This document shows positions 19,755 through 46,605 of a DNA stretch of 64,000 nucleotides, piece after piece; the stretch's first letter is position 1; every line of letters starts with the position of its first letter. Both the position numbers and the translations under genes were made by a program. The stretch lies in NCBI RefSeq assembly GCF_020520425.1, contig NC_079487.1, positions 58,876,719 to 58,940,718 of the forward strand. Direction: 5' to 3'. The stretch comes from Spinacia oleracea (taxonomy: Eukaryota > Streptophyta > Magnoliopsida > Caryophyllales > Amaranthaceae). The notes below the pieces were generated by a model. That model did no database searches, had not been told where the DNA came from, and saw only the letters and a program-made list of their open reading frames with translations.

Positions 19755-19785
19755 TTTCCTTCACTATACCCAGTGGAGTCGCCAC
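19755..19785 (-). other. gypsy primer-binding site of the truncated element
   Basis: TTTCCTTCACTATACCC then AGTGGAGTCGCCAC. On the minus strand this reads GTGGCGACTCCACTGGG directly after LTR A. The same site precedes LTR B (29148-29166) and LTR D (40906-40924) as GTGGCGACTCCACTGGGGA or with one change. This resembles the primer site I recall for Ogre/Tat gypsy elements, assigned there to tRNA-Arg; the tRNA assignment is from memory. Confidence 0.8.
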
Positions 19786-21246
19786 TGTGAGGGGGTCGAA
19801 AAAGCACGAGGCTAATGCATGACCTCGCCCCTCGTGGGTGTGACGCTTCTTTTTATTCAATCAAGTGTAATTGGATTTCCTGTGAGTTTACACCCAATTG
19901 ACTAGTAATATAGGAGTCGCCATTCAGTTTTTAACAACAATGAGAAAAACTGACAAAACCCGGTTATCGTGACATAAAGGGAGTGCAATTATGTTTGACC
20001 ACGACGGCCGTAGGTTCCCTTGTGATCCCTGGTGTGGGGATCTCTCAACATACACCCGCAAGGTAGAGATTGAGGGTTCGGGGGACTGTAACTACCGAGA
20101 GGAGTACTTCGCTCGTCGATAACTCCAGAGGCAGGATATCCTTACTAGCTCAGCATAAATAATTGAAGGGACATGCGTTAACTATTAAACTAATCTGAGT
20201 TGATTTTAGCAATATGCAACATATAATACTAGATCGATCGCGATTATCTGATTTAAATAGCATTAAGGGGCCTAGCATGATAATCCAATTTCCCAAAAAT
20301 ATTATATTTGTTAGGCGTGATAGAACAATCAGATTTAGTTAGTTTAACAGTTCATAAAAAGGGCGAGGAAAGCAATTAAATCATCGAAAAGGGACACATT
20401 ACGACGCACCCTTGAGAGGTGCGTCACGGTTCTCAGAAAACTAACCACTTTGACTTTGCTATTTCTCCTTTTTATTTAACGAATCTCAAATTATGGGACA
20501 GGATACGTTCTGTTCGATTTATGGATCGATTGCGACAGAACGCGTGAACAATTTCGCAGCGTGAGGCTTAGGCTAAGGGTTGGAGTCAATACTCAGAATA
20601 TGAATTGTGTGTTGTGTCTTTTTCACGTCAAACTTAAGGGTCTATTTATAGGAAAGAGTGGCATAGAAAGATAGTTTTTCAGGAATTTGAATACGAAACG
20701 GATTAGGAAAAGAATCCGTCCCAGGTATTTTCGGCGCCCAGCTCTGGGCGTCAAAGATTTCGGCGCCCAAGGCTGGGCGTTGAAAATAGGGTCTGGAAGA
20801 ATTCTTTGTCAGATTGGACTCTAGAGTACGGAGTTCATTAAGAGACTTAATCCGAGTTATTTGGTGCGTATCAATTTACGATGGAATGCGTCTGGGCCCT
20901 TTACGAACTCTAGGTTCGTTATGAGTTTAATTAATACGTTAACTCTTTTATCGAACTGCGATAGGAATAGAATTCCTTTTACAATTTCTATCTCTTTTAG
21001 GATTTATGTTGGAGTGCAACACCTAATTCTGACATGTTTCTATCTTTTTATTCTTACTACTTTTAGCAACTACCCTTTACGGCAGTTACTATTTTTAGCA
21101 GGTTTCCATAAATAGCAGGCTTCGGGTGAAATGAAAAGGGTGATTGAGATTCGTTATTTTATAGGAGATGCGTTGTCAAGTGGAGATTTACGTTTTCATC
21201 ATCGAACCTTCCCTTTCGGGAATGGGGACAAAAGTAGGTGTCTACA
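19786..21246 (-). repeat. gypsy LTR A (shared between two element bodies)
   Basis: TGTGAGGGGG...GGTGTCTACA, 1461 bp. A TATA box (CCTATAAATA, minus strand) lies at about 20643-20652. A paired GC hairpin lies at 20732-20780. Uniquely in the window it has a primer-binding site on its left and a polypurine tract on its right, so it serves as 5' LTR of the truncated element and 3' LTR of element 1. Confidence 0.9.
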
Positions 21247-21261
21247 GTTAGCCCCCACTTT
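21247..21261 (-). other. polypurine tract of gypsy element 1
   Basis: AAAGTGGGGGCTAAC on the minus strand, flush with the LTR. The same tract stands at 32729-32743 and 57477-57491. Confidence 0.88.
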
Positions 21262-21763
21262 GACTGAGTCTTGGAGTAAGACGATGGTCAAAGTATTAGA
21301 CGGAGTGCATCGCACAAGCCATGGTGACCTGTTTTGGCGAGGGTCTCACGAGCCCCCGAGTGATAACATTTGACTTAAGGGTCATCACTTGAAGTGTCGA
21401 CATATCCCTCACGTGTCATTGGGATTTGTCAACGAATAGTATAGAAACTCCCTCACTTTGTCATTGGAAGTATCTAAAGAGGCGTAGAAACTCCCTCACT
21501 TTGTCATTGGGAGTAGCTACAGATGTTTTCGAAATCAAAGCTATAAAGTGTAATTGGGCCTGGCCAAGCCCAACCACGAGGTAAAAATGTTTTTAAAGAT
21601 TCTCATTTTCAGGGCTAGCTAAACGAGAAAACCCCCTTGTTTTTATGGGACGTAAAACGAAGGAAAATCCAACACATCGTTCTTTTTTGGAAAAACGGAA
21701 AACCAATCCTTTTATTTTTTTGGAAAAAGGGAAAACCGTAAAAAGTTATCGCTGCAACGACTA

Positions 21764-22200
21764 AGGACCTGCGTGGTTAGTGACGCAGACCCCGCCGGCT
21801 AAAGATGGCGAGCCTGTCCGCTAAGGGTGGACACCCCGTCCGATAGAAGTGGACGAATCTGTTTTTGAAATTTGAAAATAAGGACCTACGCGGTTTGTGA
21901 CGTAGACCCCGCCGGCTAAAGATGGCGAGCCTGTCCGCTAAGGGTGGACACCCCGTCCCATAGAAGTGGACGAATCTATTTTGAAATTTGTTTGTGCTTT
22001 TTTGAAAATAAGGACCTACGTGGTTTGTGACGTAGACCCCGCCGGCTGAAGATGGCGAGCCTATTTTAAATTTGAAGACTTTATTTTTCGAAAACTGAGG
22101 ACCTGCGCGGCTAGTGATGCAGACCCCGCCCGCTGAAGGTGGGTGAGCCCTGTCCGCTAAGGGTGGACGCCCCGCTTGCTGGAGGTGAGCGAACCTGAAT
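21764..22200. repeat. four degenerate tandem repeats (87-130 bp) in gypsy element 1
   Basis: Units start GGACCT(G/A)CG at 21764, 21882, 22012 and 22099. Each carries GACGCAGACCCCGCC, GGCTAAAGATGGCGAGCC and, in some, CCGATAGAAGTGGACGAATC. Sister arrays are at 33473-33910 and 57996-58270. The long minus frame across it is a repeat translation, not a gene. Confidence 0.88.
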
Positions 22201-22259
22201 TCGTCTTTTCGATTTGGGATTCGTGTGCCGCGATCTTGCCCGATTGAGGTGGGCAAGTC

Positions 22260-25200
22260 CCTATTTCATTTTTTTTTTTTTGTGATTTCTTTTGAGAATT
22301 TCTTTTTATTCATTCTTATAGGAGCGAATTCTTCCGAGGGATGCTCGGATTTAGTTGCAACCTGAATGTGGGTTGACAATGTGTTTAGATGGACCATAGT
22401 CTTGTGGTCATCACCTTTTCATGGTTTTGAGCTAGTCTATCTGGCTCAATTTTTCCACTACCTGGATCCTTGATTAGGGGACTATGTATAAGTATCAACG
22501 GCGACCTTTGTCTCGAGGTCGTAATCCGGTTTTATTTTTTGAGACATCCAAACACGGGACTTCGTACAACGTAGTCTGGGAATATTGTTTTAATTTTTCA
22601 TACTCTCTTTTGAAAAATATATATTTTCTTTCTAGCCCCCAAGCATTCGTGTTTGACGGTCATTTCTTGTCAAAGGGGTTCTTTGGGAATACGCTATTTG
22701 TGATGTCCTTGATCGTGTTTGGGATCGTGCAGCGAGCGATCTTTGTAGTGGTGTGCTACTCTTGACAAAGCCGTGAGGTGCGACTTCCAGTAAAGAAACC
22801 GGCAATTTTCGAGTCGAATGGATGCGGCAGGGCCCAATAGAAGTTAGGGCCTTTTTTGAGCCTGGGTTCATTTTCGGCGCCCAGGCCTGGGCGTTGAAAT
22901 AATTCACGCCCAGGTAGGGCGTTAAAAGTGTTGTTTGGGCTGGTCTTTTGATGAAACAGTTGGCCTCTTGTTCATTCGTTTATTTCACTTGGAAGTTCTA
23001 TGTATTCTCTTTTCTTTTGTTTTTTTCTTTGTTTTTAGAACGTGATGATTTTCTTGAGAAGTCGTAGCCGATTGGTGGACTACGGTGCTTGTCGCTTTGG
23101 GGCGATTATTTTAAGGAACTGTTGCTCTTAAGGCGTACAGTTATTGTGATAGTTGGGCGAGTCTATATGGCCCGAGGAACATACCTTGAGGCGTAAGACT
23201 TTGACCGCTCTTGTTGTTGTATATTTTTCCTTTTGAACGCGTTCGTGAATGTTCGATACTTAGAATGATGATATGTATGTGCGAACGAGCGTTCATAGAA
23301 TGGCCGTTGTGTGCGGTCCGTTAATCAGTTTGCTTGAATTAATTTTTTTTTTTGAGCAATGACTGATTTTGAATAGTTTGCTTAGAAGCTTGAGAGGGTT
23401 CAGGCCCATTTATGAAGTGGGCTCAAACATCGTACCCTTTCGATTGTTCAAATATTTGCTTCGAGATTTTTTTTGTTTTGCTATGGTTGTTTCGTAGCTT
23501 GGAGCCCCCAAGTATGCATGTTGGGATGCTTCCTTTTGGCATACGTTTTTTGTAGGTTTTTTCGAGACTGATGCCCTGGGGTTCTGCTCGTGTAGGTGCG
23601 AGCTATCCCTTTCGTGGTAGGTAATATTTTGCTACCTTTAATCATTAATGTAGAAGTCGTGTGGCTTGCATTTTGAATTTGGGGCGACAAGTAATCTTTG
23701 CCTCTTTTACACATGCTCTTTGGTCGTGCTCGCATTAGTGCAATATGTCTTACTCTCTTTTTTTAGACTTGTACCGTGGGATGGTTTAACTTATGGTGCG
23801 ACGTAGGCTTGTGTGGCCTAACGGCGTGTCTTAGAACATTTCTCCAGGTGTTGGGATATCATTATTATTTTTTCCGTTGGAGTACTTTATCACGCATTCG
23901 TTCAGGTGTTCGAACAAGTGCAGCACCTTCTGCGTGGGTTTGCACGGCTTATTACTTCGTTCGATGCGAGAACTCAGGTGTTTCTTTCTTATTTTTATAT
24001 CTGGGCAAAACATGGCTAGCAGAAAGATTCAGCGCCCAGGCTGGGGCGTTAAAGATATCGGCGCCCAGCTCTGGGCGTTGAAAATGATTTCTGGGTATAT
24101 TTTGATAGTTCTTATCCTTGATTTTTTCTTTCGCTTTTGCTTTGGAACGATGTAGACTGTGTAACGGGCGCTTTATAGGGCGAGCGTTATGTGCAGTAGT
24201 TTGATCGGAGTTTTGGTGACTCGTGATTTTCAGTTACCCTTGTTAGTGGGGTGACTTTATATATTCTAAGTAGCGTTTAGAATTTGGGAGGGGTTGTAGC
24301 CATTCTAAGGTTCGTTTTACATGATCAAACCTTAGGATTGTGCCCCTATGATGTATGTATAGCATTAGCGTCGAGAATTTGCGATAAAATCGTCATTTCG
24401 AGCATCTTTAGAGTGTTTTTCTCAAGCCCCCAATTGTAGCTACGGGATTGGCTTGGTGCTATAATGCTTTGCATACGCCTTTATGTATTCATGGTGACAT
24501 GGCTCACGAATAGTTTGAACCAGACTCGTTTAGTGCGAGGTACGTTCGAGTAGTGACCTGCTACTTCTCTTGTAAATGTCGTATTATGCGACATCGCCAT
24601 GGTCAAGGTAGTAACATGTGGAAGTGTGCCTTGACCAAAAGTTAGGTGCCTTTCTTTTACCCATAATCATATTTAGAAATCTTTTGACTCACTTGCAACA
24701 TCGGGATAAACGCATACTTAGATTAAACCAACGACTCTTTATTATGTTCGAAGAAGTTTTTGATAATTATTTGGAAATTGTTTAAAATCCGAATCCTACT
24801 GTGTACAGTCCGAGGTGTCCTAACTAAGTTGACTTATAGAAGGGTTCGTACAGGATTACATGAATCAAAATACTGTTACGATTTTTGGAATGTTGTCTAA
24901 GGATTTTCTGGAAGCCAGGGTGCAGGCGTCAAGATATACTTGTGCCCGTTTGGCATATGCTTTAGGCTTTTAGGGCCATCTTTTCCAGAATTGCGGGAAT
25001 ATAAACCGTTTTCAAATCGACTTAGATTTACTTGGTGTATGTCTGCACAAAAGGTCAAGGTATACTTAGTTCTTTCCCTTGCCCTTTCATTTCAATTTTT
25101 ACCCCCCAATTAATATTATGTCTTCCCATTAATAATGCTTTCAGATTTCGATTTTAGATTCCCGTGTCACATGTCTGGGTAGGGTGAGCCTCGGTTAAGT

Positions 25201-26340
25201 GCCAAGTCCTATTGACAATGTCTGATTTTTTTCAAAGGAGATTAGCAGGCATTCGAGTTACCATGAACGGGTGCCCTGAGTTCGAAGGAACGATGGGGTG
25301 ATGCCGTAGAACAATCCTCTTTATTGCAAGCTTACTGCCTTTACTACTTGTCGGCGACTATGACTGTGTCTAGGGGTGAAAGAAGGTCTTTAAGCGATCG
25401 ACTATGTCTAGTGGTGAAAGAAAGTCTTTAAGTGAGTTAGTTCGCTTTAGGGAGGGTCAAGTCGAGTACTTTAGAGGTTATGGACGCTTGCGCTAGCCCC
25501 CATTTAATTGAGGCAAAGCGGTTTTTTGAGTCTTGGCTAAGCGCCTAGGAGTGTGAGTGCTCCTTCTGGCAAGGGTACGTGCCCTTTATTATTTTTCGAT
25601 GTGTGCTTGTTTTGGCATCTTGATGACTTGGATTCTTCTTTTGACTTAAGTTTTTCTTTCGACTTGGATTGCAAGTAATTAAATTTCAATAAGGGACTCC
25701 ATTTCTTATTCTTGTTATTCTATAGGCTTTAATATTTATGTAAATTGGTTGGACCGAATCATGGATTGCCTACGTATCCGCCTTAAATAGATTTAATTTG
25801 GAATCAGGTCTTGCGTAGTTCTTAGCCAGAAAATGGTTTCATAGAATGCCGAATTCGATAAGTATGTTGTGAGATGGAAACATATTATTTGAAACGGTAG
25901 AATAAGTGAGGTTTATTATTATTTTAATCTGCTGCTTTGCTGTAAGCCAAAAATTTGTTTTATATATTTTTTTGAGTACATGTATTTTTTGGTGGTACGT
26001 ATATCTGAATACGTGTTGTACCCCTCCTAAGTGTTCGTTATTTTTCCGTGCATGTGCGGATAAAATGACGAGCACTTCTGAACAAAACTTGGCAGGCAGA
26101 GAGTTTCAACGCCCAGGCAGGGGCGCTAAAGATTTCGGCGCCCAGCTGTGGGCGCTGAAAATTATTTCTGGGCGGATCTTTTTTGGTGCGCTAAATGCTT
26201 TTTTTTTCTTTTTAGACGAACTTTTAAAGGCTCTTTGCAAAGTTTCTTTAACATTTTTTTATTATTTTTTGTACTTTTATTTGTTTTTTATATTCGTAAC
26301 TCAAGACGGCTTGAAAGACGGGTTGAATGAGATAGGATAA
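22260..26340 (-). mobile_element. non-coding interior of gypsy element 1, polypurine-side part
   Basis: No recognisable protein. Paired GC hairpins stand at 22875-22922, 24031-24079 and 26109-26156. Polypurine-like GGGGGCT motifs (minus strand) lie at about 22633, 23501, 24424 and 25492. The sequence around 25745-25830 (GGATTGCCTACGTATC) is conserved in element 2 at 37434 and in the autonomous-type element at 62104, where integrase coding sequence starts about 400 bp further right. Confidence 0.8.
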
Positions 26341-26362
26341 TTTGTATAGGTATTAGTGAAGC

Positions 26363-26743
26363 ATGAGGATTACATCTGCTAGGACTCACAATTTGCGGCT
26401 TCAAACTAGTGTCATGAGTTTACATCAACCAAGGCCAAGGAGTAGCATGGGGATGACTCAAGGGTATATCAACAGGATGTATCCAAACAAGTTAAATGGT
26501 CATTATGCTAATGGTGGTGTAAGAGCAGGTTTTGGTTTTGGAAATGATGGGCATGACGCACGTGTCAATGGCAGTGCGTGGTTTGCGGTTGACAACAAGT
26601 TCAAGAACAAGAGTCGAGGTAATGGTTTCTTGGGTTATGGCAATGAGAACATGGATGGGTTAAATGAGCTGAACAGGGGTCCCAGAGCGAAAGCGTCTAA
26701 GAACATAAGGATTGGAAAGGGTAGACATCGTAGAATTTTATGA
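26363..26743 (+). pseudogene. captured fragment of a YTH-domain (ECT-type m6A reader) gene
   Basis: A 126-codon open frame contains GYINRMYPNKLNGHYANGG, then NGSAWFAVDNKFKNKSRGNG, then NENMDGLNELNRGPRAK. This is the stretch just before the YTH domain in plant ECT proteins: the Tyr/Gly-rich linker with RMYPNK, and the very conserved GLNELNRGPRAK. The YTH domain itself, with the Trp cage, is absent; the frame ends IRIGKGRHRRIL after the homologous part. It lies antisense to the retrotransposon. A second copy is at 38059-38450. The host protein binds m6A-modified mRNA; this piece could not. It was captured by the element, then copied with it. Confidence 0.82.
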
Positions 26744-29166
26744 TTTGGATTGGTTGACTCAATTCTTTTCCTTCGTTTGCTTGGGTAAATTCCGCGCTTT
26801 GGGAGGTACGGGCTAACTATTTCATGGCTCGCTCTTTTCGCTCTCCCTTTTCCCTTTCTTTTTAAGTATTTCATGGCTTGCTCTTTTCGCTCTCCCTTTT
26901 CTCTTTCTATTTTTTTGTTTTTGCTTGGGATTTCTCCCCAACATGAATCCTTCAAAATTTTTTATTTGGGCTAGGAGGTAGATGGTTGTGGTCTTTGAGT
27001 CACGAGGCGAGACCGAGTGAGCCTCGTTTGGTAGGCCTATAGTGGACCTTTAATTTTAGTAGGCCTAGGGTGGACCTTTAATTTTCTTACTTTGCAAGCG
27101 TATTTAGTCGTTTCTTAAAATGTGCAAATAGCGTAGATTCAAAATGTTATTTTTACCTTATTGAAATTTAACGGAAGAATTATATCGAAAATAATGTTTT
27201 TTCTCCTTTTCAGATTCCAGTTTATGGGATTTAATTGGAAGTTGTGATCTAGACTCGAACTTTCATTAATCTTTCTGATTATAACCCGTGTATGAATACA
27301 AGGAGGTGGCCTAGACTCAAAATAATGACGTGGCGTGAGCCTGTAATACTTGATCAAGCGACTCTCAGACTTAGGCTAATTGGACCATAACTTTCGTTGG
27401 TTGACACTTTAGATTTTAACCCTTGGGTGTTCATTTGTCATGCGCCATTTTGCTTAATGTTGGCAAGGTAGTTAATTGGGGAGATCGAATTTTTATTTTT
27501 TCAAGACTAGAATCATTAGTGCGGCTTCTCTCTTAGTGTGTATTGCTTTACCCCAATGGCAGCCTTATGGTATGCCGATTTGGGTATTTTCATGGTTGGT
27601 CATGTTGCATTCGTGGAAAATCTTTTAGTCCGTACTTAGTAGTATTTCAAGGAGCGAGTGACTCGAGAGGACTATGATAGTCGTGACCCGATGTGATTAT
27701 AAGCCTTGAGGCCATTAATTCTTGCTAATGGTATTGACACCTTAGGTTCACTTTGGGGGTTGTGCGACTATGGGGGAATGATTTCCAGAATGTGGCTGTT
27801 TCCATTTTGCAAATACATAAAATATTCTTTTTATTGGTGAGAGAGAGTATTGAGGCCGTAAATTCTTAGTAAGGGATGACAATTACATATGGGTGCTTAT
27901 TGATTTAAATGTTAGGAAGGGAGACTCAATATGGTTTAACCTTTTAACTTGCAGAACGACACCAAGCATTAGGACCGATTCTATGGATAAGACAACCGAG
28001 ACTTAGGATTTAGATTGTACTTTGGCATAGCCTAGTCTAGACTCGGATTTTTTTTTATTCGAACATCATTTTTCTGAAAACTTCATTTGAACATTATTTT
28101 TTGAACGTTATTTCAATTAGCATGTTCGGTTTTGGTGCCGAGCATTGTCGTCGTAGGAGGCCTAACAACGACACAAAGAGTTATTTTAGTTTTTACAAGT
28201 CGCTTTTTAGAATCGAGTGCCTTTCATACGCCCTCGCAGCAATTTTTTCAAAAAGTTTTTTTTTGCTACGTATATTTTTTTTATGCGCGGGCACCGAGGC
28301 TGCTGTGACTGACCAAAAGGCCAGGCAGCAACTTCAGCGCCCAGCAGTGGGCGTGAGAAATTTCGGCGCCCAGCCAGGGGCGTTGAAAATGCGTCCCTGG
28401 CTGGTTCTCGTTTTCAGTTTTCGTCTACTTTTGTTTTTGCGAATTTAAATTTGCGTGCTTGCCTTATAACGTCCTTTACGCGTTGTGCAGCGTTTGTGGG
28501 ATTCGTTACGGCCATCCCGAGCGTGGCTTATTTTTGTGGCGATCGTTCGGGCTTGCGGAACACGTATTTTGGTATAACTCTTTGGCCAATTGGTTCATGA
28601 ATGTTTGGGCAATTCTTTTTAAGGTCGTTGGTTTTCTAGCATTATTTGTCTAGCATTATTCGTACGCACAATCATAACATAGTCACACAGTTCGCTACAC
28701 ATAACTACATTACAAACATGGATTTGAAAATTAAATATGTCACGTAGTTTATGATAGGCTTCTATGGGTAGTATTTGCGCCTGGCTTGGTACTGCTTCTA
28801 TCGTAGATCCAACACATGCCCCGGTCGAGGTAGTGTCTTCAACAGACGAATTTCGCTCGAGAGGCCAACCCGCAAGTGCAAGCCAATGGGGCATGCAGGC
28901 GAGAGGGACCTAATGAGCGAGCGATTGGGTTCGTGATAGGTGTACTACCTGCACAAGTACCGAGTGGGCAACATGCGCGGCGTATGCACCCCCCTATTGG
29001 CGAAAAAAAAGGTATCCTTAGTCCCAACTCCCCAGGGAGCCGAGATTTTCAGGTCGTCCCAACTTGATGGGGAAATAAACGCGGGGTAGGATCGTTTCAC
29101 CCTTCGGCTATTTTGATTACCTACAAGCATTAGTATTTCCTTCACTATCCCCAGTGGAGTCGCCAC
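26744..29166 (-). mobile_element. non-coding interior of gypsy element 1, PBS-side part
   Basis: No coding region recognised. There is a tandem duplication rich in CTCTTTTCGCTCTCCC at about 26826-26910 and a paired GC hairpin at 28335-28385. 28072-29150 matches the truncated element at 5578-6702. It ends in the primer-binding site at 29148-29166. Confidence 0.8.
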
Positions 29167-30626
29167 TGTGAGGGGGTCGAAAAAGCACGAGGCTAATGCA
29201 TGACCTCGCCCCTCGTGGGTGTGACGCTTCTTTTTATTCAATCAAGTGTAATTGGATTTCCTGTGAGTTTACACCCATTTGACTAATAATATAGGAATCG
29301 CCATTCATTTTTAACAACAATGAGAAAAACTGACAAAACCCGGTTATCGTGACATAAAGGGAGTGCAATTATGTTTGACCACGACGGCCGTAGGTACCCT
29401 TGTGATCCCTGGTGTGGGGATCTCTCAACATACACCCGCAAGGTAGAGATTGAGGGTTCGGGGGACTGTAACTACCGAGAGGAGTACTTCGCTCGTCGAT
29501 AACTCCAGAGGCAGGATATCCTTACTAGGTCAGCATAAATAATTGAAGGGACATGCGTTAACTATTAAACTAATCTGCGTTGATTTTAGCAATATGCAAC
29601 ATATAATACTAGATCGATTGGGATTATCTGATTTAAATAGCATTAAGGGGCCTAGCATGATAATCCAATTTCCCAAAAATATTATATTTGTTAGGCGTGA
29701 TAGAACAATCAGATTTAGTTAGTTTAATAGTTCATAAAAAGGGCGAGGAAAGCAATTAAATCATCGAAAAGGGACACATTACGACGCACCCTTGAGAGGT
29801 GCGTCACGGTTCTCAGAAAACTAACCACTTTGACTTTGCTATTTCTCCTTTTTATTTAACGAATCTCAAATTATGGGACATGATACGTTCTGTTCGATTT
29901 ATGGATCGATTGCGACAGAACGCGTGAACAATTTCGCAGCGTGAGGCTTAGGCTAAGGGTTGGAGTCAATACTCAGAATATGAATTGTGTGTTGTGTCTT
30001 TTTCACGTCAAACTTAAGGGTCTATTTATAGGAAAGAGTGGCGTAGAAAGATAGTTTTTCAGGAATTTGAATACGAAACGGATTAGGAAAAGAATCCGTC
30101 CCAGGTATTTTCGGCGCCCAGCTCTGGGCGTCAAAGATTTAGGCGCCCAGGGCTGGGCGTTGAAAATAGGGTCTGGCAGAATTCTTTGTCAGATTGGACT
30201 CTAGAGTACGGAGTTCATTAAGAGACTTAATCCGAGTTATTTGGTGCGTATCAATTTACGACGGAATGCGTCTGGGCCCTTTACGAACTCTAGGTTTGTT
30301 ATGAGTTTAATTAATACGTTAACTCTTTTATCGAACTGCGATAGGAATAGAATTCCTTTTACAATTTCTATCTCATTTAGGATTTATGTTGGAGTGCAAC
30401 ACCTAATTCTGACAGGTTTCTATTTTTTTATTCTTACTACTTTTAGCAACTACCCTTTACGGCAGTTACTATTTTTAGCAGGTTTCCATAAATAGCAGGC
30501 TTCGGGTGAAATGAAAAGGGTGATTGAGATTCGTTATTTTATAGGAGATGCGTTGTCAAGTGGAGATTTACGTTTTCATCATCGAACCTTCCCTTTCGGG
30601 AATGGGGACAAAAGTAGGTGTCTACA
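29167..30626 (-). repeat. gypsy LTR B (5' LTR of element 1)
   Basis: 1460 bp, partner of LTR A, with two GC hairpins at 30112-30160 and TATA on the minus strand near 30023-30032. The right neighbour is copia leader sequence (AATAAACGCAATTTGC), the same as position 384 onward. Confidence 0.92.
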
Positions 30627-31360
30627 AATAAACGCAATTTGCAATTAATTAACAATTACGAAAATTAATCATCCCTTTTAATTCTTTGCAAATTTGTAAA
30701 ATTTAACCACGTTAAGCAATTATTATGGAATTAATTAGAGGCTCGTGATACCACTGTTAGGTTATGATACATATAAACGAATATAAATCATGCGGAAAAA
30801 CCATAAACGCCAGGATTCCAAATTAATTGCCACATAATAATTAGCATAATTAGGATGCGTAATCTTTGTAGCGTGCCCTCCCTTGCTGCGCCCGAACCGA
30901 ACAAGAACAAGTCTTTAGGACTCCAAGTGTCGTCCCTCCGTAGAAAGTCCACAACACGTCCGGATCCGCCTTAAGATTGACTAACTAGAATCGCCCTTAT
31001 GGTACTAAATATTCGACTATATGGGCAAGGTGTTTGACTGAATTTTTGGCTCAAATTCTTACCTTTGAATACTTCAAACTCGTTATAAATTATGAGCCTT
31101 GATCTCATAATTATAGGCCATGGAATAAGTAAACGAATTCTACTAGGATACGAATTAATTAAATTAGAATCCTAGCAGAACTCTAAATTAATTAATTTAT
31201 CTTTTTAGGGTTAGGAAATTTAATCATCAAACGAATCCTATACGCTTTAGGTTTTGTATGTGAACACAAACACACACGCACGCACAGCAGCCCAAGAGGG
31301 GCGCCATGCGCACGCGCGCAGCCCGAGCAACGCAACCCACTCGCGACGCTAATTCGTACG
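30627..31360 (-). mobile_element. copia fragment: leader, primer-binding site and truncated 5' LTR
   Basis: 30627-30738 matches the leader at about 384-505. The primer site reads TGGTATCACGAGCC on the minus strand (about 30740-30753). 30755-31360 is the first part of a family-1-related but more diverged LTR. It is cut at 31360, inside the GC-rich block, and joined to gypsy LTR C. Gypsy element 1 ends inside this leader on the other side. Confidence 0.85.
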
Positions 31361-32728
31361 ACAATGAGAAAAACTGAGAAAACCCGGTTATCGTGACATA
31401 AAGGGAGTGCAATTATGTTTGACCACGACGGCCGTAGGTTCCCTTGTGATCCCTGGTGGTGGGGATCGCTCAACGTACACCCGCAGGGTAGAGATTGAGG
31501 GTTCGGGGGACTGTAACTACCGAGAGGAGTACTCGCTCTTCGATAACTCCAGAGGCAGGATATCCTTACTAGCTCAGCATAAATAATTGAAGGGACATGC
31601 GTTAACTATTAAACTAATCTGAGTTGATTTTATCAATATGCAACATATAGTACTAGACCGAACGCGATTATCTGATTTAGATTGTTTTAAGGGACCTAGC
31701 ATGATAATCCAATTTCCCAAAAATATCATATTTATTAAGCGTGATCGAACAATCAGATTTTAGTTAGTTTAACAGTTCATAAAAGGGCGAGGAAAGCAAT
31801 TAAACCATGGAAAAGGGACAAATTACGACGCACCCTTGAGAGGTGCGTCACGGTTCTCAGAAAACTAACCACTTTGACTTTGCTATTTCTCCTTTTATTT
31901 AACGAATCTCAAATTATGGGACAGGATACGTTCTGTTCGATTTATGGATCGATTGTGACAGAACGCGTGATCAGTTTTGCAGCGTGAGGCTTAGGCTTAG
32001 GGGTTTAGAGTCAATACTCAGAAATAATAATTGTGTGTTGTGTCTTATTCATGTCGAACTTAAGGCCCTATTTATAGAAAAGAGTTCGTGGAAAGATAGA
32101 ATTGTAAAAGTCTAATCCACGCGGAATTAGGAAAAAACACGTACTAGGTATTTTCAGCGCCCAGTGCTGGGCGTCAAAGATTTCGGCGCCCAGCTCTGGG
32201 CGTTGAAAATAGGATCCAGGCAATTTCAGCGCCCAGGGCTGGGCGTTGAAATTGCTGTTTGGGCCGCTTCTTTGTCAGATTCGGACTCTTAGAATCCGGA
32301 GCGTATGAGACTTAATCGAGTCTTTTAGTGCGTATTAATTTTATGACGGAATGCGTCTTGGCCCGTTACGAACTCTAGGCTCGTTAGGATTTCAATCAAT
32401 ACGTGACTCTTATTTTCGGATCGTATTAGGAATAGGATTCTCTCGCAATTTCTATCTCATTTAGGATTTATGTTGGAGTGCAACACCTAATTCTGACAGG
32501 TTTCTATCTTTTATGACTTGCCACTTTTAACAACTACCCATTACGGCAGTTACTATTTTAAGCAGGTTTCCATAAATAGCAGGTTTCTATAAATAGCAGG
32601 TTTCGGGTGAAATGAAAAGGGGTGATCGAGATTCGTTATTTTATAGGAGATGCGTTGTCAAGTGGAGATTTATGTTCTCATCATCGAACCTTCCCTTTCG
32701 GGAATGGGGACAAAAGTAGGTGTCTACA
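31361..32728 (-). repeat. gypsy LTR C (3' LTR of element 2, outer end deleted)
   Basis: Begins at ACAATGAGAAAAACTGAG, which is about 155 bp into the intact LTR. The join with the copia LTR has a 4-bp overlap (ACGA). Three GC hairpins lie at 32156-32246. It ends GGTGTCTACA followed by the polypurine tract. Confidence 0.9.
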
Positions 32729-33159
32729 GTTAGCCCCCACTTTGACTGAGTCTTGGAATAAGACGATGGTCAAAGTACTAGACGGAGTGCGCCACACAAG
32801 CCATGGTGACCTGTTTTTGCGAGGGTCTCACGAGCCCCCGAGTGATAACATTTAACTTAAGGGTCATCACTTGGAGTGTCGACATATCCCACACGTGTCA
32901 TTGGGATGTGTCAACGGATAGTATAGAAACTTCCTCACTTTGTCATTGGAAGGATCTAAAGAAGTGTAGAAACTCCCTCACTTTGTCATTGGGAGTAGCT
33001 ACAGATGTTTTCGAAATCAAAGCTATAAAGTGTAATTGGGCCTAGCCAAGCCCAACCACGAGGTAAAAAATATTTTTAAAGATTCTCATTTTCAAGGCTA
33101 GTTAAACGAGAAAACCCCCTTGTTTTTATGGGACGTAAAACGAAGGAAAATCCAGCACA

Positions 33160-33450
33160 TCGTTCTTTTTTGGAAAAACGGAAAACCAATCCTTTACTTT
33201 TTGGAAAAAAGGGAAAACCAATCTCATCGTTCTTTTTTGGAAAAACGGAAAACCAATCCTTTAATTTTTGGAAAAAAGGGAAAACCAATCACATCGTTCT
33301 TTTTTGGAAAAAAGGAAAACCAATCCTTTAATTTTTGGAAAAAGGGAAAACCGATCCTTTAATTTTTGGAAAAAGGGAAAACCGATCCTTTAATTTTTGG
33401 AAAAAGGGAAAACCGATCCTTTAATTTTTTGAAAAAGGGAAAACCGATAA
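33160..33450. repeat. short tandem repeats of the TTTTTGGAAAAAGGGAAAACC type
   Basis: About eight units of 31-46 bp, alternating TTTTTTGGAAAAACGGAAAACC and CCTTTAATTTTTGGAAAAAGG. Element 1 has two or three units (21690-21740) and the autonomous-type element has two (57918-57970). Element 2 is therefore expanded. ORFs here are repeat translations on both strands. Confidence 0.9.
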
Positions 33451-33472
33451 AGGTTATCGCTGCAGCGACTAA

Positions 33473-33910
33473 GGACCTGCGCGGTTAGTGACGCAGACCC
33501 CGCCGGCTAAAGATGGCGAGCCTGTCCGCTAAGGGTGGATACCCCGTCCGATAGAAGTGGACGAATCTGTTTTTGAAATTTGAAAATAAGGACCTACGCG
33601 GTTTGTGACGTAGACCCCGCCGGCTGAAGATGGCGAACCTGTCCGCTAAAGGTGGACGCCCCGTCCGATAGAAGTGGACGAATCTGTTTTGAAATTTGTT
33701 TGTGCTTTTTGAAAATAAGGACCTACGTGATTTGTGACGTAGACCCCGCCGGCTGAAGATTGCGAGCCTGTTTCATTTTGTTTTTTGAAGATTCTATTTT
33801 TCGAAAACTGAGGACCTGCGCGGTTAGTGACGCAGACCCCGCCCGCTGAGGGTGGGCGAGCCCTGTCCGCTAAGGGTGGACGCCCCGCTCGCTGGAGATG
33901 AGCGAACCTG
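33473..33910. repeat. degenerate tandem repeats (~90-130 bp) in gypsy element 2
   Basis: Four units, collinear with 21764-22200 in element 1; motifs GACGCAGACCCCGCC and GAAGTGGACGAATC recur. Confidence 0.88.
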
Positions 33911-36900
33911 AATTCATCTTTTGATTTGGGATTCGCGTGCCGTGGTCTTGCCTGATTGAGGTAGGCAAGTTCCTATTTCTTTTGTTCATCGTGATTTCTT
34001 TTGAGAATTTATTTTTACTCAATCTTGTAGGAGCGAATTCTTTCGAGGGATGCTCGGATTTAGTTGCAACCTGAATGTGGGTTGACAACGTGCTCAGACG
34101 GACCATTGTCTCGTGGTCATCATCTTTCATGGTCTTGAGCTAGTCTTTACGGCTCAATTTTTCCACTACTTGGGTCCTTGATTAGGGGACTACGTATAGG
34201 TATCAACGGCGACCTTTGTCTTGAGGTCGTAAACCGGTTTTATCTTTTGAAACATCCAAACACGGGACTTCGTACAGCGTAGTCTGGCAGTCTTATTTTA
34301 CCTTTGCATAATATATATTTTCTTTCGAGCCCCCAAGCACTCGTGCTTGACGGTCATTTCTTGTCAAAGAGGTTCCTTGGGGATACGCATTCTGTAATGT
34401 CCTTGATCGTGTTTGGGATTGTGCTCGTAAGTGCGAGCGATCTTTGTAGTGGTGTGCTACTCTTAACAAAGCCGTAAGGTGCGACATTCAGTAAAGAAAT
34501 CGGCAATTTTCAAGTCGAATGAATATGGAAGGGCCCTATAGAAGTCAGAGCTGTTTTTTGGGCCTGGGCTCACTTTCGGCGCCCAGGCCTGGTCGTTGAA
34601 ATAATTCACGCCCAGGTGGGGCGTCAGAAATAACTAAAGCCCAGGTGGGGCGTTGAAAATGTTGTTTGGGCCGGTCTTTAGATGACACAGTTGGCCTCTT
34701 GTTTTTTCATTTATTTCACTTGGAAGTTCTATGTATTCTCTTTTCTTTTGTTTTTTCTTTGTGTTTAGAACGTGATGATTTTCTTGAGAATCCGTAGCCG
34801 ATTGGTGGACTACGGTGCTTGTCGCTTTGGGGCGATTATTTTAAGGAATTGTTGCTCTTAAGGCGTACAGTTATTGCGGTAGTTGGGCGAGTCTATATGG
34901 CCTGAGGAACATACCTTGAGGCGTAAGACTTTGACCGCTCTTGTTGTTGTATATTTTTCCTTTTGAACGCGTTCGTGAATGTTCGATACTTAGAATGATG
35001 ATATGTATGTGCGAACGAGTGTTCATAGAATGGCCGTTGTGTGCGGTCCATTAATCAGTTTGCTTGAATCATTTTTTTTTTTGAGCAATGACTGATTTTG
35101 AATAGTTTGCTTAGAAGCTTGATAGGGTTCAGGCCCATTCATGAAGTGGGCTCAAACATCGTACCCTTTCGATTGTTCAAACATTTGCTTCGAGATTATT
35201 TTTTTTTTTTTTTGCTATGGTTGTTTCGTAGCTTGGAGCCCCCAAGTATGCATGTTGGGATGCTTCCTTTTGGCGTACGATTTTTGTAGGTTCTTTCGAG
35301 ACAGATGCCCTGGATTCCGCTCGTGCAGGTGCGAGCTATCCCTTTCGTGGTAGGTAAGATTTTGCTACTTTCAATCCTTAATGTAGAAGTCGTGTGGCTT
35401 GCATTTTGAATTTGGGCGATAAGTAGTCTTTGCCTCTTTTACACATGCTCTTTGGTCGTGCCCGCATTAGTGCAATATGCCTTACTCTCTTTTTTTTAGA
35501 CTTGTACCGTGGGATGGCTGAACTTATGGTGCGACGTAGGCTTGTGTGGCCTAACAACATGTATTAGAACATTTATCCAGGTGTTGGGATATCATTGCAA
35601 TTGAGTACTTCATTACGCCTCGTTCAGGTGCTCGAACAAGTGTAGCACCTTCTGCGTGGGTTTGCATGGCTTATTACTTTGTTCGATGCGAGGATTCATA
35701 GATGTTTATTTCTTGTTTTTATATCTGGGCAAAATTTGACAAGCAGAAAGAATCAGCGCCCAGGCTGGGGCGTTAAAGATATCGGCGCCCAGCTCTGGGC
35801 GTTGAAAATTATTTCTGGGTAGAATTTTGACAGTTTTTTTTTTTGATTTTTTTTCTTTCGCTTTTGCTTTGGAACGAGGTAGACTGTGTAACGGGCGCTT
35901 GTAGGGAGAGCGTTATGTGCAGTAGTTTGATCGGAGTTTTGGTGACTCGCGATTTTCAGTTACCCTTGTTAGTGGGGTGACTTTATATATTCTAAGTAGC
36001 GCTTAGAATTTGGGAGGGGTTGTAGCCATTCTAAGGTTCGTTTCACACGATTAAAGCTTATGATTGTGCCCCTATGACGTGTGTATAGCATTAGCGTCGA
36101 GAATTTGCGATAAAATCGTCATTTCGAGCATTTTTAGAGTGTTTTTCTCAAGCCTCCAACTGTTGGTGCTATAATGCCTTGCACACGTTTTTATGCATTC
36201 ATGGTGACACGGATCATGAATTGTTTGAACCTGACTCGTTTAGTGCGAGGTATGTTCGAGTAGTGATTTTGCTACTTCTCTTGTAAATGTCGTATTGTGC
36301 GACATTGCCATGGTCAAGGTAGTCACATGTTGTAGTATGCCTTGGCCAAAAGCTAGGTGCCTTTCTTTACCCATAATCATATTTAGAAATCTTTTTGACT
36401 CACTTGCAACATCGAGATAAACACATACTTAGCTTAAACCAACGACACTTTATTATGTTCGAAAAAGTCTTTGAAAATTATTTGAAACTTATTAAAAATC
36501 CGAGTCCTACTATGTACAATCCGAGGTGTCTTAGGCAAGTTGACTTATAGAAGGGTTCGTACCGGATTATATGAGTGAATCAAAATACTGTTACGATTTT
36601 TGGAATGCTGTCTAAGGATTTGCTGGAAGCCAAGGTGCAGGCGTCAAGATATACTTGTGCCAGTTTGGCACATGTTTTGGGCTTTTAGGGCCATCTTTTC
36701 CAGAATTGCGGGAATATAAACCGTTTTCAAATTGACTTAGATTTACTTGGTGTATGTCTGCACAAAAGGTCAAGGTATACTTAGTTCTTTCCCTAGCTCT
36801 TTCATTTCAATTTTTAGCCCCCAGTTGCTGTTATGTCTTCTCATTAATGATGTTTTCAGATTTCGATTTTAGATGCCCGTGTCATATGTCTGAGTAGGGT

Positions 36901-38048
36901 GAGCCTTGGTTAAGTGCCAAGTCCTATTGACAATGTCTGATTTTTTTTTCCGAAGGGGATTAGCGAGCATTTGAATTACCATGAGCGGGTGCCCTGAGTT
37001 CGAAGGAATGATGGGGCGATGCCGTAGAACAATCCTTTTTATTGCAAGCTTACTGCCTTTACTACTTGTTGGTGATTATGACTGTGTCTAGTGGTGAAAG
37101 AAAGTCTTTAAGTGAGTTAGTTCGCTTTAGGGAGGGTCAAGTCGAGTACTTTAGAGGTCATGGACGTTTGCGCTAGCCCCCATTCAATTGAGGCGAAGCG
37201 ATCTTTTGAGTCTTGGCTAAGTGCCTAGGAGTGTGAGTGCTCCTTCTGGCAAGGGTACGTGCCCTTATTATTTTTCGATGTGTGCTCATTAATTTGGGCA
37301 TCTTGATGACTTGGATTCTTCCTTTGACTTAAATTTTTCTTTCGACTTGGGTTGCAAGTAATTAAATTTCAATAAGGGACTCTATTTCTTATTCTGGTTA
37401 TTTTATAGGCTTTAATATTTTTGCAAATTGGTTGGACCGAATCATGGATTGCCTACGTATCCGCCTTAAATAGATTTAATTTGTAATCAGGTCTTGCGTA
37501 GTTCTTAGCCTAGAAAATGGTTTCTTAGAATGCCGAATTCGATAAGTATGTTCTGAGGTGGAAACATATTATTTGAAACGGTAGAATAAGTGAAGTTTAT
37601 TATTATTTTAATCTGCTGCCTTGCCGTAAGCCAAAAAATTTGTTTTGTTTTATATTATTTTTTTGATTGAGTACATGTATTTCTTTGGTGGTACTTATAT
37701 CTGAATACGTGTTGTACCCCCCAAGTGTTCGTTATTGTTCCGTGTATGTGCGGATAAAATGACGAGCACTTCTGGACAAATTTTAGCAAGCAGAGAGATT
37801 CGGCGCCCAGGCAGGGGCGCTAAAGATTTCGGTGCCCAACTCTGGGCGCTGAAAATGACTTCTGGGCGGATCTTTTTTTGGTGCGCTAAATGCTTCTTTT
37901 CTTTTTAGACTAACTTTAGAGGCACTTTGCAAAGTTTCTTTTTTTTAAATTTTTTTTTTACGTTAAGCGTAGAATGTACTTTTCATTTGTCTTTTTTTAT
38001 TTGTGACTCAAGACGGCTTGAATGATGGGTTGAATGAGATAGGGTAAT
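33911..38048 (-). mobile_element. non-coding interior of gypsy element 2, polypurine-side part
   Basis: No protein recognised. GC hairpins lie at 34577-34665 (three arms), 35754-35802 and 37801-37850. GGGGGCT motifs (minus strand) lie at about 34327, 35235, 36815 and 37172. It is collinear with 22260-26340. Confidence 0.8.
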
Positions 38049-38450
38049 TTGTATAGGTATTGGTCAAGCATAAGGATTACATCTGCTAGGATTCACATTT
38101 TACGGCCTCAGGCTAGTGTCACGAGTTTACATCAATCAAGGCCAATCAGTAGCATAGGGACGGCTCAAGGGTATATCAACAGGACGTATCCAAACAAGTT
38201 ATATGGTCATTATGCTAATGGTGGTGTAAGAGAAGGTTTGGACTTTGGAAATGATGGGCATGACGCACGTGTCAATGGCCGTGCGTGGTTTGCGGTTGAT
38301 AACAAGTTCAAAAACAAGAGTTGAGGTAATGGTTTCTTGGGTTATGGCAATGAGAATATGGATTGGTTAAATGAGCTGAACAAGGCCCCAGAGCGAAGGC
38401 GTCTAAGAACATAAGGATTGGAAAGGGTAGACATCGTAGAACTTTATGAT
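38049..38450 (+). pseudogene. second captured YTH-domain (ECT-type) gene fragment, more decayed
   Basis: Collinear with 26363-26743. Open from 38049 through QGYINRTYPNKLYGHYANGG and NGRAWFAVDNKFKNKS to a TGA at 38322-38324. The frame continues GNGFLGYGNENMDWLNELNK, then shifts by one base so that the RGPRAK part is lost. The shared extra 5' codons (YRYWSSIRITSARIHILRP) suggest the captured piece begins slightly upstream of the copy in element 1. It is antisense to the element. Confidence 0.8.
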
Positions 38451-40924
38451 TTGGATTGGTTGACTCAATTCTTTTCCTTTGTTTACTTGGGTAAATTTCG
38501 CACTTTGGGAGGTACGGGCTAAGTATTTCATGGTTCGCTCTTTTCGCTCTCCCTCTTCTCTTTCTTTTCATAGCTTGCTCTTTTCGCTCTCCCTTTTCTC
38601 TTTCTATTTGTTCTTTTTGCTTGGGATTTCTCCCCAACATAAATCCTTCAAAATTTTTTATTTGGGCTAAAAGGTAGATGGTTGTGGTCTTTGAGTCACG
38701 AGGCGAGACTGAGTGAGCCTCGTTTGGTAGGCCTATAGTGGACCTTTAATTTTAGTAGGCCTAGGGTGGACCTTGTTAAATTGTCTTACTTTGCAAGCGT
38801 ATTTAGTCGTTTCTTAAAATGTGCAAATAGCGTAGATTCAAAATGTTATTTTTACCTTATTGAAATTTAACGAAAGAATTACATCGAAAACAATTTTTTT
38901 TGCTTTTTTTTTTTCAGATTCTAGTTTTTGGGATTTAATTGGAAGTTGTGATTTAGACTCGAACTTTCATTAACTTTTCTGATTATAACCCGTGTATGAA
39001 TACAAGGAGGTGGCCTAGACTAAAATTAATGACGTGGCGTAAGCCTATAATACTTGACCAAGCGACTCTCAGACTTAGGCTAATTGGACCATAACTTTCG
39101 TTGGTTGACACTTTAGATTTTAACCCTTGGGTGTTCATTTGTCATGCGCCATTTTGCTTAATGTTGGCAAGGTAGTTAGTTGGGGAGATCGAATTTTTAT
39201 TTTTGCAAGACTAGAATCATTAGTGCGGCTTCCCTCTTAATGTGTATTGCTTTACCCCAATGGTAGCCTTGTGGTATGCCGATTTGGGTATTTTCATGGT
39301 TGGTCATGTTGCATTCATGGAAAATCTTTTAGTCCGTACTTAGGAGTATTTAAAGGAGCGAGTGGCTCGAGAGGACTATGATGGTCGTGACCCAATGTGA
39401 TCATAAGCCTTGAGGCCATTAATATTTCTTGCCAATGGTATTGACACCTTAGGTTCACTTTGGGGGTTGTGCGACTATGGGGGAATGATTTCCAGAATGT
39501 GACCGTTTCCATTTTGCAAATACATAACATATTCTTTTTATTGGTGAGAGAGAGTATTGAGGCCGTGGATTCCTAGCAAGGGATGAAAATTACATATGGG
39601 TGCTCATTGATTTAAATGTTAGGAAGGGAGACTCAATATGGTATAACCTTTTAGCTTGCAGAACGACACCAAGTATTAGGACCGATTCTATGGATAAGAC
39701 AACTAAGACTTAGGATTTAGATTGTACTTCGGCATAACCCAGTCTAGACTCGGATTTTTTTTTTTATTCGAACATTATTTTTCCTTGAAAACTTCATTTG
39801 AACATTATTTTTTGAATATTTTGCCCATGTCACATTCAAGGTTATTTCAATTAGCGTGCTCGGTTTTGGTGCCGAGCATTGTCGTCGTAGGAGGCCTAAC
39901 AACGACACAAAGAGTTATTTATTTTTATTTTTTTCGTCGCTTTTAGAATCAAGTGCCTTTTCATACGCCCTCGCAGCAATTTTTTTTCGAAAAGTTTTTT
40001 TTTTTGCTACGTATTTTCTTCACGCGTGGGCACCGAGGCTGCTGTGCCTGACCAAAAGGCCAGGCAGTAACTTCAGCGCCCAGGGTAGGGGGTGAGAAAT
40101 TTCGGCGCCCAGCCAGAAGCGTTGAAAATGCGTCCCTGGCTGGTTCTCGTTTTCTGTTTGCGTCTACTTTTGTTCATGCGACTTCGATTTTGCGTGCTTG
40201 CCTAATAACGTCCTTTACGCGTTGTGCAGCGTTTGTGGGATTCGTTACAGGCCATCCCGAGCGTCGCTTATTTTTGTGGCGATCGTTCGGGCTTGCGGAA
40301 CACGTATTTCGGTATAACTCTTTGGAAAATTGGTTTATGAATGTTTGGGCAATTTTTTTTAGGTCGTTGGTTTCCTAACATTGTTTGTCACATGATCACA
40401 TATTGCGCTACACATTACTAACATCACATCATGAAGCAATAATAATATGTCACGTAGTTTATGATAGGCTTCTATGGGTAGTTATTTGTGCCTGGCTTGG
40501 TACCGCTTCTATCGTAGATCCAACACATGCCCCGGTCGAGGTAGTGTCTTCAGCAGACGAATTTCGCTCAAGAGGCCAACCCGCAAGTGCAAGCCAAGGG
40601 GGCATGCAGGCGAGAGGGACCTAATGGTCGAGCGATTGGGTTTGGGACGGGTGTACTACTAGCGAAAGTGCCGAGTGGACAACATTCGAAGCGTATGCAC
40701 CCCCCGGTTGGCGATGGGTATCCTTAGTCCCAACTCCCAAGATGAAACACCAAGGGAGCCAAGATTCGTTATGCGGTTCTGTCCGTTCACATTAATATGC
40801 TGATTTTCCGGTCGTCCCAACTTGATTGGGAAATAAACGCGGGGTAGGATCGTTTCACCCTTCGGCTATTTTGATTACCTACAAGCACGAGTATTTCCTT
40901 CACTATCCCCAGTTGAGTCGCCAC
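38451..40924 (-). mobile_element. non-coding interior of gypsy element 2, PBS-side part
   Basis: No coding region recognised. A GC hairpin pair lies at 40074-40122, and the primer-binding site (one mismatch, AGTTGAGTCGCCAC on the plus strand) at 40906-40924. Confidence 0.8.
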
Positions 40925-42443
40925 TGTGAGGGGGTCGAAAAAGCACGAGGCTAATGCGTGACCTCGTCCCTCGTGGGTGTGACGCTTCTTTTTGTCAAAT
41001 CAAGTCTAATTGGATTTCCTGTGAGTTTACACCCAATTGACTAGTAATATAGGAGTCGCCATTCAGTTTTTAACGACAATGAGAAAAACTGACAAAACCC
41101 GGTTATCGTGACATAAAGGGAGTGCAATTATGTTTGACCACGACGGTCGTAGGTTCCCTTGTGATTCCTGGTGGTGGGGATTGCTCAACGTACACCCGCA
41201 GGGTAGAGATTGAGGGTTCGGGGGACTGTAACTACCGAGAGGAGTACTCGCTCTTCGATAACTCCAGAGGCAGGATATCCTTACTAGCTCAGCATAAATA
41301 ATTGAAGGGACATGCGTTAACTATTAAACTAATCTGAGTTGATTTTATCAATATGCAACATATAGTACTAGATCGAACACGATTATCTGATTTAGATTGT
41401 TTTAAGGGACCTAGCATGATAATCCAATTTCCCAAAAATATCATATTTATTAAGCGTGATCGAACAATCAGATTTTAGTTAGTTTAACAGTTCATAAAAG
41501 GGAGAGGAAAGCAATTAAACCATGGAAAAGGGACACATTACGACGCACCCTTGAGAGGTGCGTCACGGTTCTCAGAAAACTAACCACTTTGACTTTGCTA
41601 TTTCTCCTTTTATTTAACGAATCTCAAATTATGGGACAGGATACGTTATGTTCGATTTATGGATCGATTGCGACAGAACGCGTAATCAGTTTTGCAGCGT
41701 GAGGCTTAGGCTTAGGGGTTTAGAGTCAATACTCAGAAATAATAATTCTGTGTTGTGTCTCTTTCATGTCGAACTTAAGGCCCTATTTATAGAAAAGAGT
41801 TCGTGGAAAGATAGAATTGTAGAACTCTAATCCACGCGGAATTAGGAAAAAACACGTACCAGGTATTTTCAGCGCCCAGTGCTGGGCGTCAAAGATTTCG
41901 GCGCCCAGCTCTGGGCGTTGAAAATAGGATCCAGGCAATTTCAGCGCCCAGGGCTGGGCGTTGAAATTGCTGTTTGGGCCGCTTCTTTGTCAGATTCGGA
42001 CTCTTAGAATCCGGAGCGTATGAGACTTAATCGAGTCTTTTAGTGCGTATTAATTTTATGACGGAATGCGTCTGGACCCGTTACGAACTCTAGGCTCGTT
42101 AGGATTTCAATCAATACGTGACTCTTATTTTCGGATCGTATTAGGAATAGGATTCTCTCGCAATTTCTATCTCATTTAGGATTTATGTTGGAGTGCAACA
42201 CCTAATTCTGACAGGTTTCTATCTTTTATGACTTGCCACTTTTAACAACTACCCATTACGACAGTTACTATTTTAAGCAGGTTTCCATAAATAGCAGGTT
42301 TCTATAAATAGCAGGTTTCGGGTGAAATGAAAAGGGGTGATCGAGATTCGTTATTTTATAGGAGATGCGTTGTCGAGTGGAGATTTATGTTCTCATCATC
42401 GAACCTTCCCTTTCGGGAATGGGGACAAAAGTAGGTGTCTACA
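40925..42443 (-). repeat. gypsy LTR D (5' LTR of element 2)
   Basis: 1519 bp, TGTGAGGGGG...GGTGTCTACA, with three GC hairpins at 41871-41960 and TATA on the minus strand near 41785-41793. One base (G, 42444) separates it from the solo copia LTR on the right. Confidence 0.92.
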
Positions 42444-46566: not shown

Positions 46567-46605
46567 GACTAAGCAATTTCATTAGTAACCTCAAATAGAA
46601 ATAAA

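What the first reader, a model, noticed from the sequence alone, without database searches (positions are those of the whole stretch)
26363..38450. YTH-domain (m6A reader) gene fragment captured by a non-autonomous Ogre-like retrotransposon
Two gypsy elements that have lost gag-pol both carry, at the same internal position and antisense, a piece of a plant ECT-type YTH protein (RMYPNK, NENMDGLNELNRGPRAK). The copy at 26363 is still fully open; the copy at 38049 has a stop and a frameshift. A host-gene capture shared by two elements means it happened before they amplified. Antisense reads from the element would produce RNA complementary to, or sense copies of, an m6A-reader mRNA. That could feed siRNA against the host reader gene or retrotransposon RNA regulation; this last step is inference.
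Basis: partly seen in the sequence, partly recalled or inferred. Interest (0 to 1): 0.85.

Follow-up and report, generated by a model that had tools for sequence, protein, structure and literature searches.

The report
Retrotransposon carrying spliced m6A-reader mRNA piece
A plant jumping element that seems to lack its own enzymes picked up a spliced, backwards piece of an m6A-reader gene and multiplied to thousands of copies, so its RNA would be complementary to that gene's message; whether this matters to the plant is untested.

Summary
Two minus-strand LTR elements (A 19786-30626; B about 31358-42443) carry it antisense.

The parent gene is in the same genome (L053, contig C4, about 103 kb). 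Element A 26370-26711 matches two of its exons, joined exactly where the gene has a 773-bp GT-AG intron, so the source was spliced RNA. AGGATT stands at both edges.

Joining the two element flanks predicted an empty site; it occurs at 21 places (reversed control 0). The filled right junction occurs at 2,992 (control 0). One capture thus probably spread to about 3,000 copies.

The 126-codon frame is chimeric, open in A, broken in B. In 50 copies chosen by ORF similarity, variants are not far from neutral (N:S 121:65, expected about 2.7:1; 8 stops, about 8 expected). Pairwise pN/pS (0.47) is nevertheless below all 12 control frames (0.67-0.92). I read it as mainly a passenger; mild constraint is not excluded.

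Copies share a median of 87 perfect 21-mers with the parent mRNA (51-nt run in A).

The parts
19786..21246 (-). Element A, 3' LTR (TG...CA)
   Evidence: 98.6% identical to the right LTR; ends read
29167..30626 (-). Element A, 5' LTR
   Evidence: LTR-LTR K = 0.0138
29149..29165 (-). Element A primer-binding-site sequence next to the 5' LTR; sets element orientation to minus
   Evidence: the motif stands in element sense in 17 of 20 fetched 9.4-kb loci (not found in 3), on the other strand in 0 of 20
21237..21261 (-). Element A purine-rich tract at the junction with the 3' LTR
   Evidence: found in 3 of 20 fetched loci; those stretches are 9.4 kb of an element of about 10.8 kb
26363..26743 (+). 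Chimeric ORF, 126 aa: ATG and first codons from the element, the middle from the ECT gene, last about 10 codons from the element
26370..26711 (+). Captured ECT segment in A (342 bp): parts of two host exons joined, intron absent
   Evidence: host L053 149-195 and 969-1260
31358..32728 (-). Element B, 3' LTR, lacking its outer end of about 150 bp
   Evidence: 98.5% identical to the right LTR; end
40925..42443 (-). Element B, 5' LTR
   Evidence: PBS at 40907-40923; K = 0.0155
38077..38417 (+). Captured ECT segment in B, with a TGA and a 1-base deletion

Best explanation
A non-autonomous LTR element (probably Ty3/gypsy, Ogre/Tat group) took up, once, about 339 nt of spliced mRNA from the ECT-type YTH gene now at contig C4 about 103 kb. 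The piece entered in reverse orientation, at short matches (AGGA/TT) on both sides. Inferred step: the orientation fits a jump of the reverse transcriptase from its minus-strand DNA template onto the host mRNA during plus-strand synthesis; insertion of a cDNA piece into element DNA is possible too. Inferred step: the chimera was copied by the proteins of an unidentified autonomous partner to about 3,000 copies. The open frame came with the host exons and is mostly a passenger. Shown: parent, exon joining, edges, presence of the predicted empty-site sequence, count of filled junctions, orientation. Not shown: which machinery copied it, and any effect on the host gene.
For: Parent at DNA level with the 773-bp GT-AG intron precisely absent: of the 6 YTH-gene upstream regions fetched (of about 9 genes), only L053 aligns strongly (92% over 296 bp, plus 87% over 47 bp); L054 gives a weak 69% match over 71 bp. 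Predicted empty site at 21 places, reversed control 0; filled right junction at 2,992 places, control 0. PBS in element sense in 17 of 20 loci. Variant counts not far from neutral. With 14 of 50 copies set aside for unalignable flanks, ORF pi is 0.049 against 0.063 downstream and 0.107 upstream, the last over a partly T-rich stretch. B carries a broken frame and yet is a recent insertion (LTR K 0.0155).
Against: The 50 copies were picked by protein similarity to A's ORF, so neutrality was not tested on an unbiased sample. Within them there are signs of constraint: N:S 121:65 against about 2.7:1 expected, third codon positions most variable (0.043/0.046/0.060), and pairwise pN/pS of 0.47 where 12 control frames in the flanks give 0.67-0.92 (controls on 30 copies). 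No pol domain was found, so lineage and copying machinery are inferred. The empty sites could be deletions between the AGGATT repeats.
Confidence: 0.78

Rival explanations
1. The chimeric frame encodes a small basic, glycine/arginine-rich accessory protein, kept because it helps the element, for example by binding U-rich RNA as the ECT2 disordered region does.
For: No stop inside the match in 122 of the 150 scored copies (my count from the listing). N:S below neutral; pairwise pN/pS 0.47 against 0.67-0.92 in 12 control frames. 10 differences separate the gene from at least 95% of 50 copies, 6 silent and 4 not. The ECT2 IDR takes part in binding U-rich RNA (PMC8796052, passages).
Against: Copies were chosen by protein similarity. 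Stops are at the neutral number (8 against about 8 expected). The same stop stands in L005, L007 and L012, which group in the flank tree, so a lineage with a broken frame went on transposing; L008, L009 and L017 share another (a C-to-T change that may have recurred). Part of the 10 differences fell on the host gene's own branch.
Confidence: 0.15
2. The captured piece works as RNA: the element's genomic RNA is antisense to the ECT mRNA and feeds siRNA or duplex formation that lowers the m6A reader, which could favour the element.
For: The ECT piece is antisense to the element in A and B and in the 17 of 20 loci where a PBS was found. Median 87 perfect 21-mers per copy shared with the spliced gene, range 28-125 over 51 copies; 51-nt perfect run in A (copies aligned to A's length, so a few 21-mers may span a removed insertion).
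Against: No expression or small-RNA data. Silenced elements mostly make 24-nt siRNAs that act on DNA (recalled). The ECT gene's frame is open over the stretch read and its YTH exons still match, one with a TAG inside the match as in 5 of the 15 genome matches (probably intron read-through).
Confidence: 0.12
3. The 21 empty-site places are deletions by pairing of the AGGATT repeats in filled copies, not pre-capture relatives.
For: AGGATT stands at both edges, so a slip would restore exactly this sequence. One of the three empties read (L059) is slightly nearer to the filled copy L013 (0.090) than to the other empties (0.099, 0.140), and the empties sit beside L013/L024/L029 in the tree.
Against: The three empties group together in the unrooted flank tree with 18 filled copies (support 0.80, weak inside). 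All three carry two flank features seen in only 14 and 5 of 51 filled copies.
Confidence: 0.25

Closest known systems
Host-gene transduction by LTR retrotransposons (maize Bs1; [quoted passage not shown]
   Same: Pieces of host genes carried inside an LTR element
   Different: The review says transduced pieces are usually in the sense of gag-pol and in one or a few copies; here the piece is antisense and in about 3,000 copies
Antisense additional ORFs of plant Ty3/gypsy elements (Grande gene23, RIRE2, Retand ORF4/TRP28), PMC7264820 and PMC11963269
   Same: Antisense ORF inside a plant LTR element, repeated across the family
   Different: [quoted passage not shown] here no pol is detected, the parent gene is identified, and constraint is weak or absent
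AlkB (m6A demethylase) domain in Phalaenopsis Ty3/gypsy elements, PMC9289625
   Same: An m6A-pathway gene in a plant retrotransposon; that element has a tRNA-Arg PBS
   Different: That is an active enzyme domain in large gag-pol elements; here it is a domain-less linker fragment, antisense, in a non-autonomous element
Pack-MULEs and gene-carrying Helitrons
   Same: Gene pieces amplified by mobile elements (recalled)
   Different: Those copy DNA, introns included (recalled); here the intron is spliced out and the carrier is an LTR element

Membership tests
LTR retrotransposon, non-autonomous | Two near-identical LTRs with TG..CA ends, PBS and PPT | tested here: met
   A: LTRs 98.6%, PBS 29149-29165, PPT 21237-21261; B lacks the outer part of one LTR
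LTR retrotransposon, non-autonomous | No gag-pol coding capacity | tested here: met
   Longest stop-to-stop frames 162 aa in A and 145 aa in B; 0 Pfam families in 10 of A's 19 frames of at least 85 aa; 20 related loci judged by similarity to A only
LTR retrotransposon, non-autonomous | Target-site duplication | tested here: inconclusive
   None seen by eye at A, whose 3' LTR is followed by a PBS and leader remnant; B is truncated at one end
Ogre/Tat lineage | RT/RH/aRH/INT phylogeny | not testable with these tools
   No pol found in the element; autonomous partner not searched
Ogre/Tat lineage | PBS complementary to tRNA-Arg | tested here: inconclusive
   Conserved PBS sequence found; that Ogre PBSs pair with tRNA-Arg was read in PMC9289625 (passage); no tRNA gene was compared here
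ECT/YTHDF protein | YTH domain (PF04146) | tested here: not met
   No Pfam hit in the ORF; homology ends before the domain
Retro-captured (spliced) host gene fragment | Parent gene in the genome, intron removed exactly | tested here: met
   L053; 773-bp GT-AG intron absent
Antisense additional ORF of plant Ty3/gypsy elements | Frame kept by selection across the family | tested here: inconclusive
   50 ORF-selected copies: stops at the neutral number, N:S and pN/pS below neutral or control

The most novel reading that the evidence does not exclude
This would be a retrotransposon acting on the m6A pathway through complementary RNA rather than through an enzyme.
Probability: 0.1. Interest if true: 0.88.

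Novelty: new variant of a known kind. Interest (0 to 1): 0.55.

Why it matters
It is an unusually complete capture record: parent gene, exact splice junction, both edges with short matches, matching empty-site sequences, and an amplified family, all in one genome. The reverse orientation is opposite to the usual transduction (PMC7264820) and argues for a less described route of uptake. Thousands of dispersed copies complementary to one m6A-reader mRNA make a clear test case for whether retrotransposon-carried gene pieces regulate their parent gene. With the orchid AlkB case it is another link between plant retrotransposons and the m6A pathway, though here it may be accidental.

Tried and rejected
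An apparent sharp block of low diversity coextensive with the ORF (ORF pi about 0.03-0.06, flanks mostly 0.1-0.2) looked like strong coding selection. It came mainly from copies whose flanks are truncated or rearranged; with 14 of 50 set aside the contrast shrinks to 0.049 against 0.063 downstream and 0.107 upstream. I dropped the claim of a conserved block; the pN/pS difference remains and is reported as evidence against a pure passenger.

The first alignment of 30 loci was wrong because loci were not oriented, and its script failed at the end; it was redone. One search failed. The per-copy ORF listing for L031-L050 was cropped off centre and is not used. The four PDB matches (E about 1) are chance.

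An ORF-independent sample of copies could not be had: the flank-pattern request and the stop-allele count requests did not complete. The autonomous partner was not searched for. No structure was predicted.

Papers: PMC9289625 abstract, section 12 and passages; PMC7264820 parts 1 and 2 of 3; PMC11963269, PMC6337768, PMC6317226 and PMC8796052 passages; all others seen only as search listings. Six of my nine paper searches bear on a YTH/ECT fragment or a comparable capture in LTR elements (they held 0, 18, 73, 5, 17 and 2 papers and listed 0, 12, 15, 5, 8 and 1). I recognised no report of this case in the titles and abstract starts listed; unlisted, subscription and preprint papers were not seen.

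Full report
WHAT IS THERE. The window lies in an 894-Mb genome of 242 contigs. ORF 26363-26743 (+) is open, 126 aa. It matches 39 proteins at E <= 0.01 of 47 candidates: a dozen close short relatives (74-95% identity), then mostly plant YTH proteins or pieces of them, mostly at 50-68% identity; 22 of the 39 bear PF04146. In the alignment of the ORF with 15 of these proteins, the part shared by most runs from about SLHQPRP to KASKNIR and stops before the YTH domain. Pfam finds nothing in the ORF itself. So it is the linker region of an ECT protein, not a reader domain.

THE ELEMENTS. Self-comparison shows element A with LTRs 98.6% identical and element B with LTRs 98.5% identical, one end of B being truncated. 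LTR distances are K = 0.0138 and 0.0155; with a commonly used rate of 1.3e-8 per site per year (recalled) that is about 0.5-0.6 million years. A sequence of primer-binding type (TGGCGACTCCACTGGGG) follows the right LTR on the minus strand, and a purine-rich tract precedes the left one. The same PBS stands in element sense in 17 of 20 fetched loci (not found in 3) and on the other strand in 0 of 20; the purine tract was found in 3 of 20. The element therefore reads on the minus strand and the ECT piece is antisense. The longest frames are 162 aa in A and 145 aa in B; 10 of A's 19 frames of at least 85 aa gave no Pfam family. A passage in PMC9289625 says that Ogre elements use a tRNA-Arg PBS; no pol is present here to test the lineage.

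THE PARENT GENE. PF04146 gives 15 matches in the genome, about nine genes by position. I fetched the upstream region of six; three were not fetched. One, L053 (contig C4, 102600-104170), matches element A at 92% over 296 bp and 87% over 47 bp. The two host stretches are separated by a 773-bp intron with GT at its start and AG at its end. In the element they are joined exactly at that junction. L054 gave a weak DNA match (69% over 71 bp) and 42% at protein level; L051 gave 50% over 32 aa; the other three gave none. The fragment thus came from spliced RNA of this gene or one very like it. It starts inside one exon and ends inside the next, before the YTH domain. Fifty-one copies differ from the gene by 4.4-8.9%.

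EDGES AND THE EMPTY SITE. At the left edge the element reads ...ATGAGGA then TT from the gene; at the right edge the gene's ...ATAAGGA meets TTGG of the element. Taking the piece out predicts one short sequence. It was found at 21 places with up to 3 mismatches, the reversed control at none. The pattern carried one base seen in 1 of 51 filled copies, A, so 21 is probably a low count. The filled right junction occurs 1,512 + 1,480 = 2,992 times, control 0. If all were full length this would be about 32 Mb, near 3.6% of the genome (rough inference). Three of the 21 empty places were read. In an unrooted tree of their flanks with the 18 filled copies (of 51) whose junctions could be cut exactly, the three group together with weak support (0.80, and 0.10 inside), beside L013, L024 and L029; one of them is slightly nearer to L013 than to the other empties. 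All three carry two flank features present in 14 and 5 of 51 filled copies. They are probably pre-capture relatives; deletion between the AGGATT repeats is not excluded.

IS THE FRAME USED? Of 150 scored copies (4,595 candidates in the first look), 122 have no stop inside the match, by my count of the listing. This ranking favours intact frames. Among 50 of these copies, variants in the ORF are 121 amino-acid-changing, 65 silent and 8 stops; a neutral expectation with transitions weighted 3 is about 2.7 to 1, with stops 0.12 per silent change, or about 8. Pairwise pN/pS is 0.47, below the 0.67-0.92 of 12 control frames in the flanks. The choice of copies by protein similarity pushes in the same direction, so this does not decide. 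A stop shared by three related copies (L005, L007, L012) shows that a lineage with a broken frame went on to transpose; B is a recent insertion with a broken frame. An early impression of a strongly conserved block did not survive setting aside the 14 of 50 copies whose flanks cannot be aligned.

COULD THE RNA ACT? Each of 51 copies shares 28-125 perfect 21-mers with the spliced gene (median 87), and A has a perfect run of 51 nt. Element RNA would be complementary to the ECT mRNA. No RNA data could be consulted, so this stays a testable idea.

HOW IT PROBABLY HAPPENED. A jump between two RNA templates during minus-strand synthesis would put the gene in the sense of the element. The reverse orientation fits a jump onto host mRNA while the plus strand was being made, or uptake of a cDNA piece into element DNA (inference). 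[quoted passage not shown] This case differs on all three points, but without evidence of function.

VERDICT. A real, well-resolved gene capture, amplified to about 3,000 copies; most likely a passenger. It is a new variant of a known kind. The regulatory reading is open.

Noticed in passing
window 19754-19785: The 3' LTR of element A is followed by a further PBS and about 14 bp of leader before the neighbouring repeat begins, as left by recombination between elements or a truncated tandem pair; no target-site duplication was seen by eye.
   Followed up: partly
window 56014-58269: A third, partial copy of the same element family: one LTR and the adjoining PPT-side internal region, without the ECT part.
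   Followed up: partly
window 1-8912, 17838-19757, 30626-31344, 55278-56014: Another repeat family in several direct and inverted copies (up to 98% alike), including long inverted arms 2690-3979 / 7551-8840.
   Followed up: no
window 52227-53718: A cluster of degenerate, closely spaced direct repeats.
   Followed up: no
window 46573-48305: Open frames that look by eye like an FAD-linked oxidase (berberine-bridge type, +) and an aldose 1-epimerase piece (-); not searched.
   Followed up: no
window 62504-63944 and 1822-2589: Frames that look by eye like Ty3/gypsy integrase/RNase H (minus) and Ty1/copia RNase H (plus); not searched.
   Followed up: no
P0008: A public 151-aa spinach gene model named 'YTH domain-containing protein ECT2-like isoform X1' has no YTH domain and ends in the element-derived tail (IGKGRHRR), so it is probably a mis-named copy of this retrotransposon frame.
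   Followed up: partly
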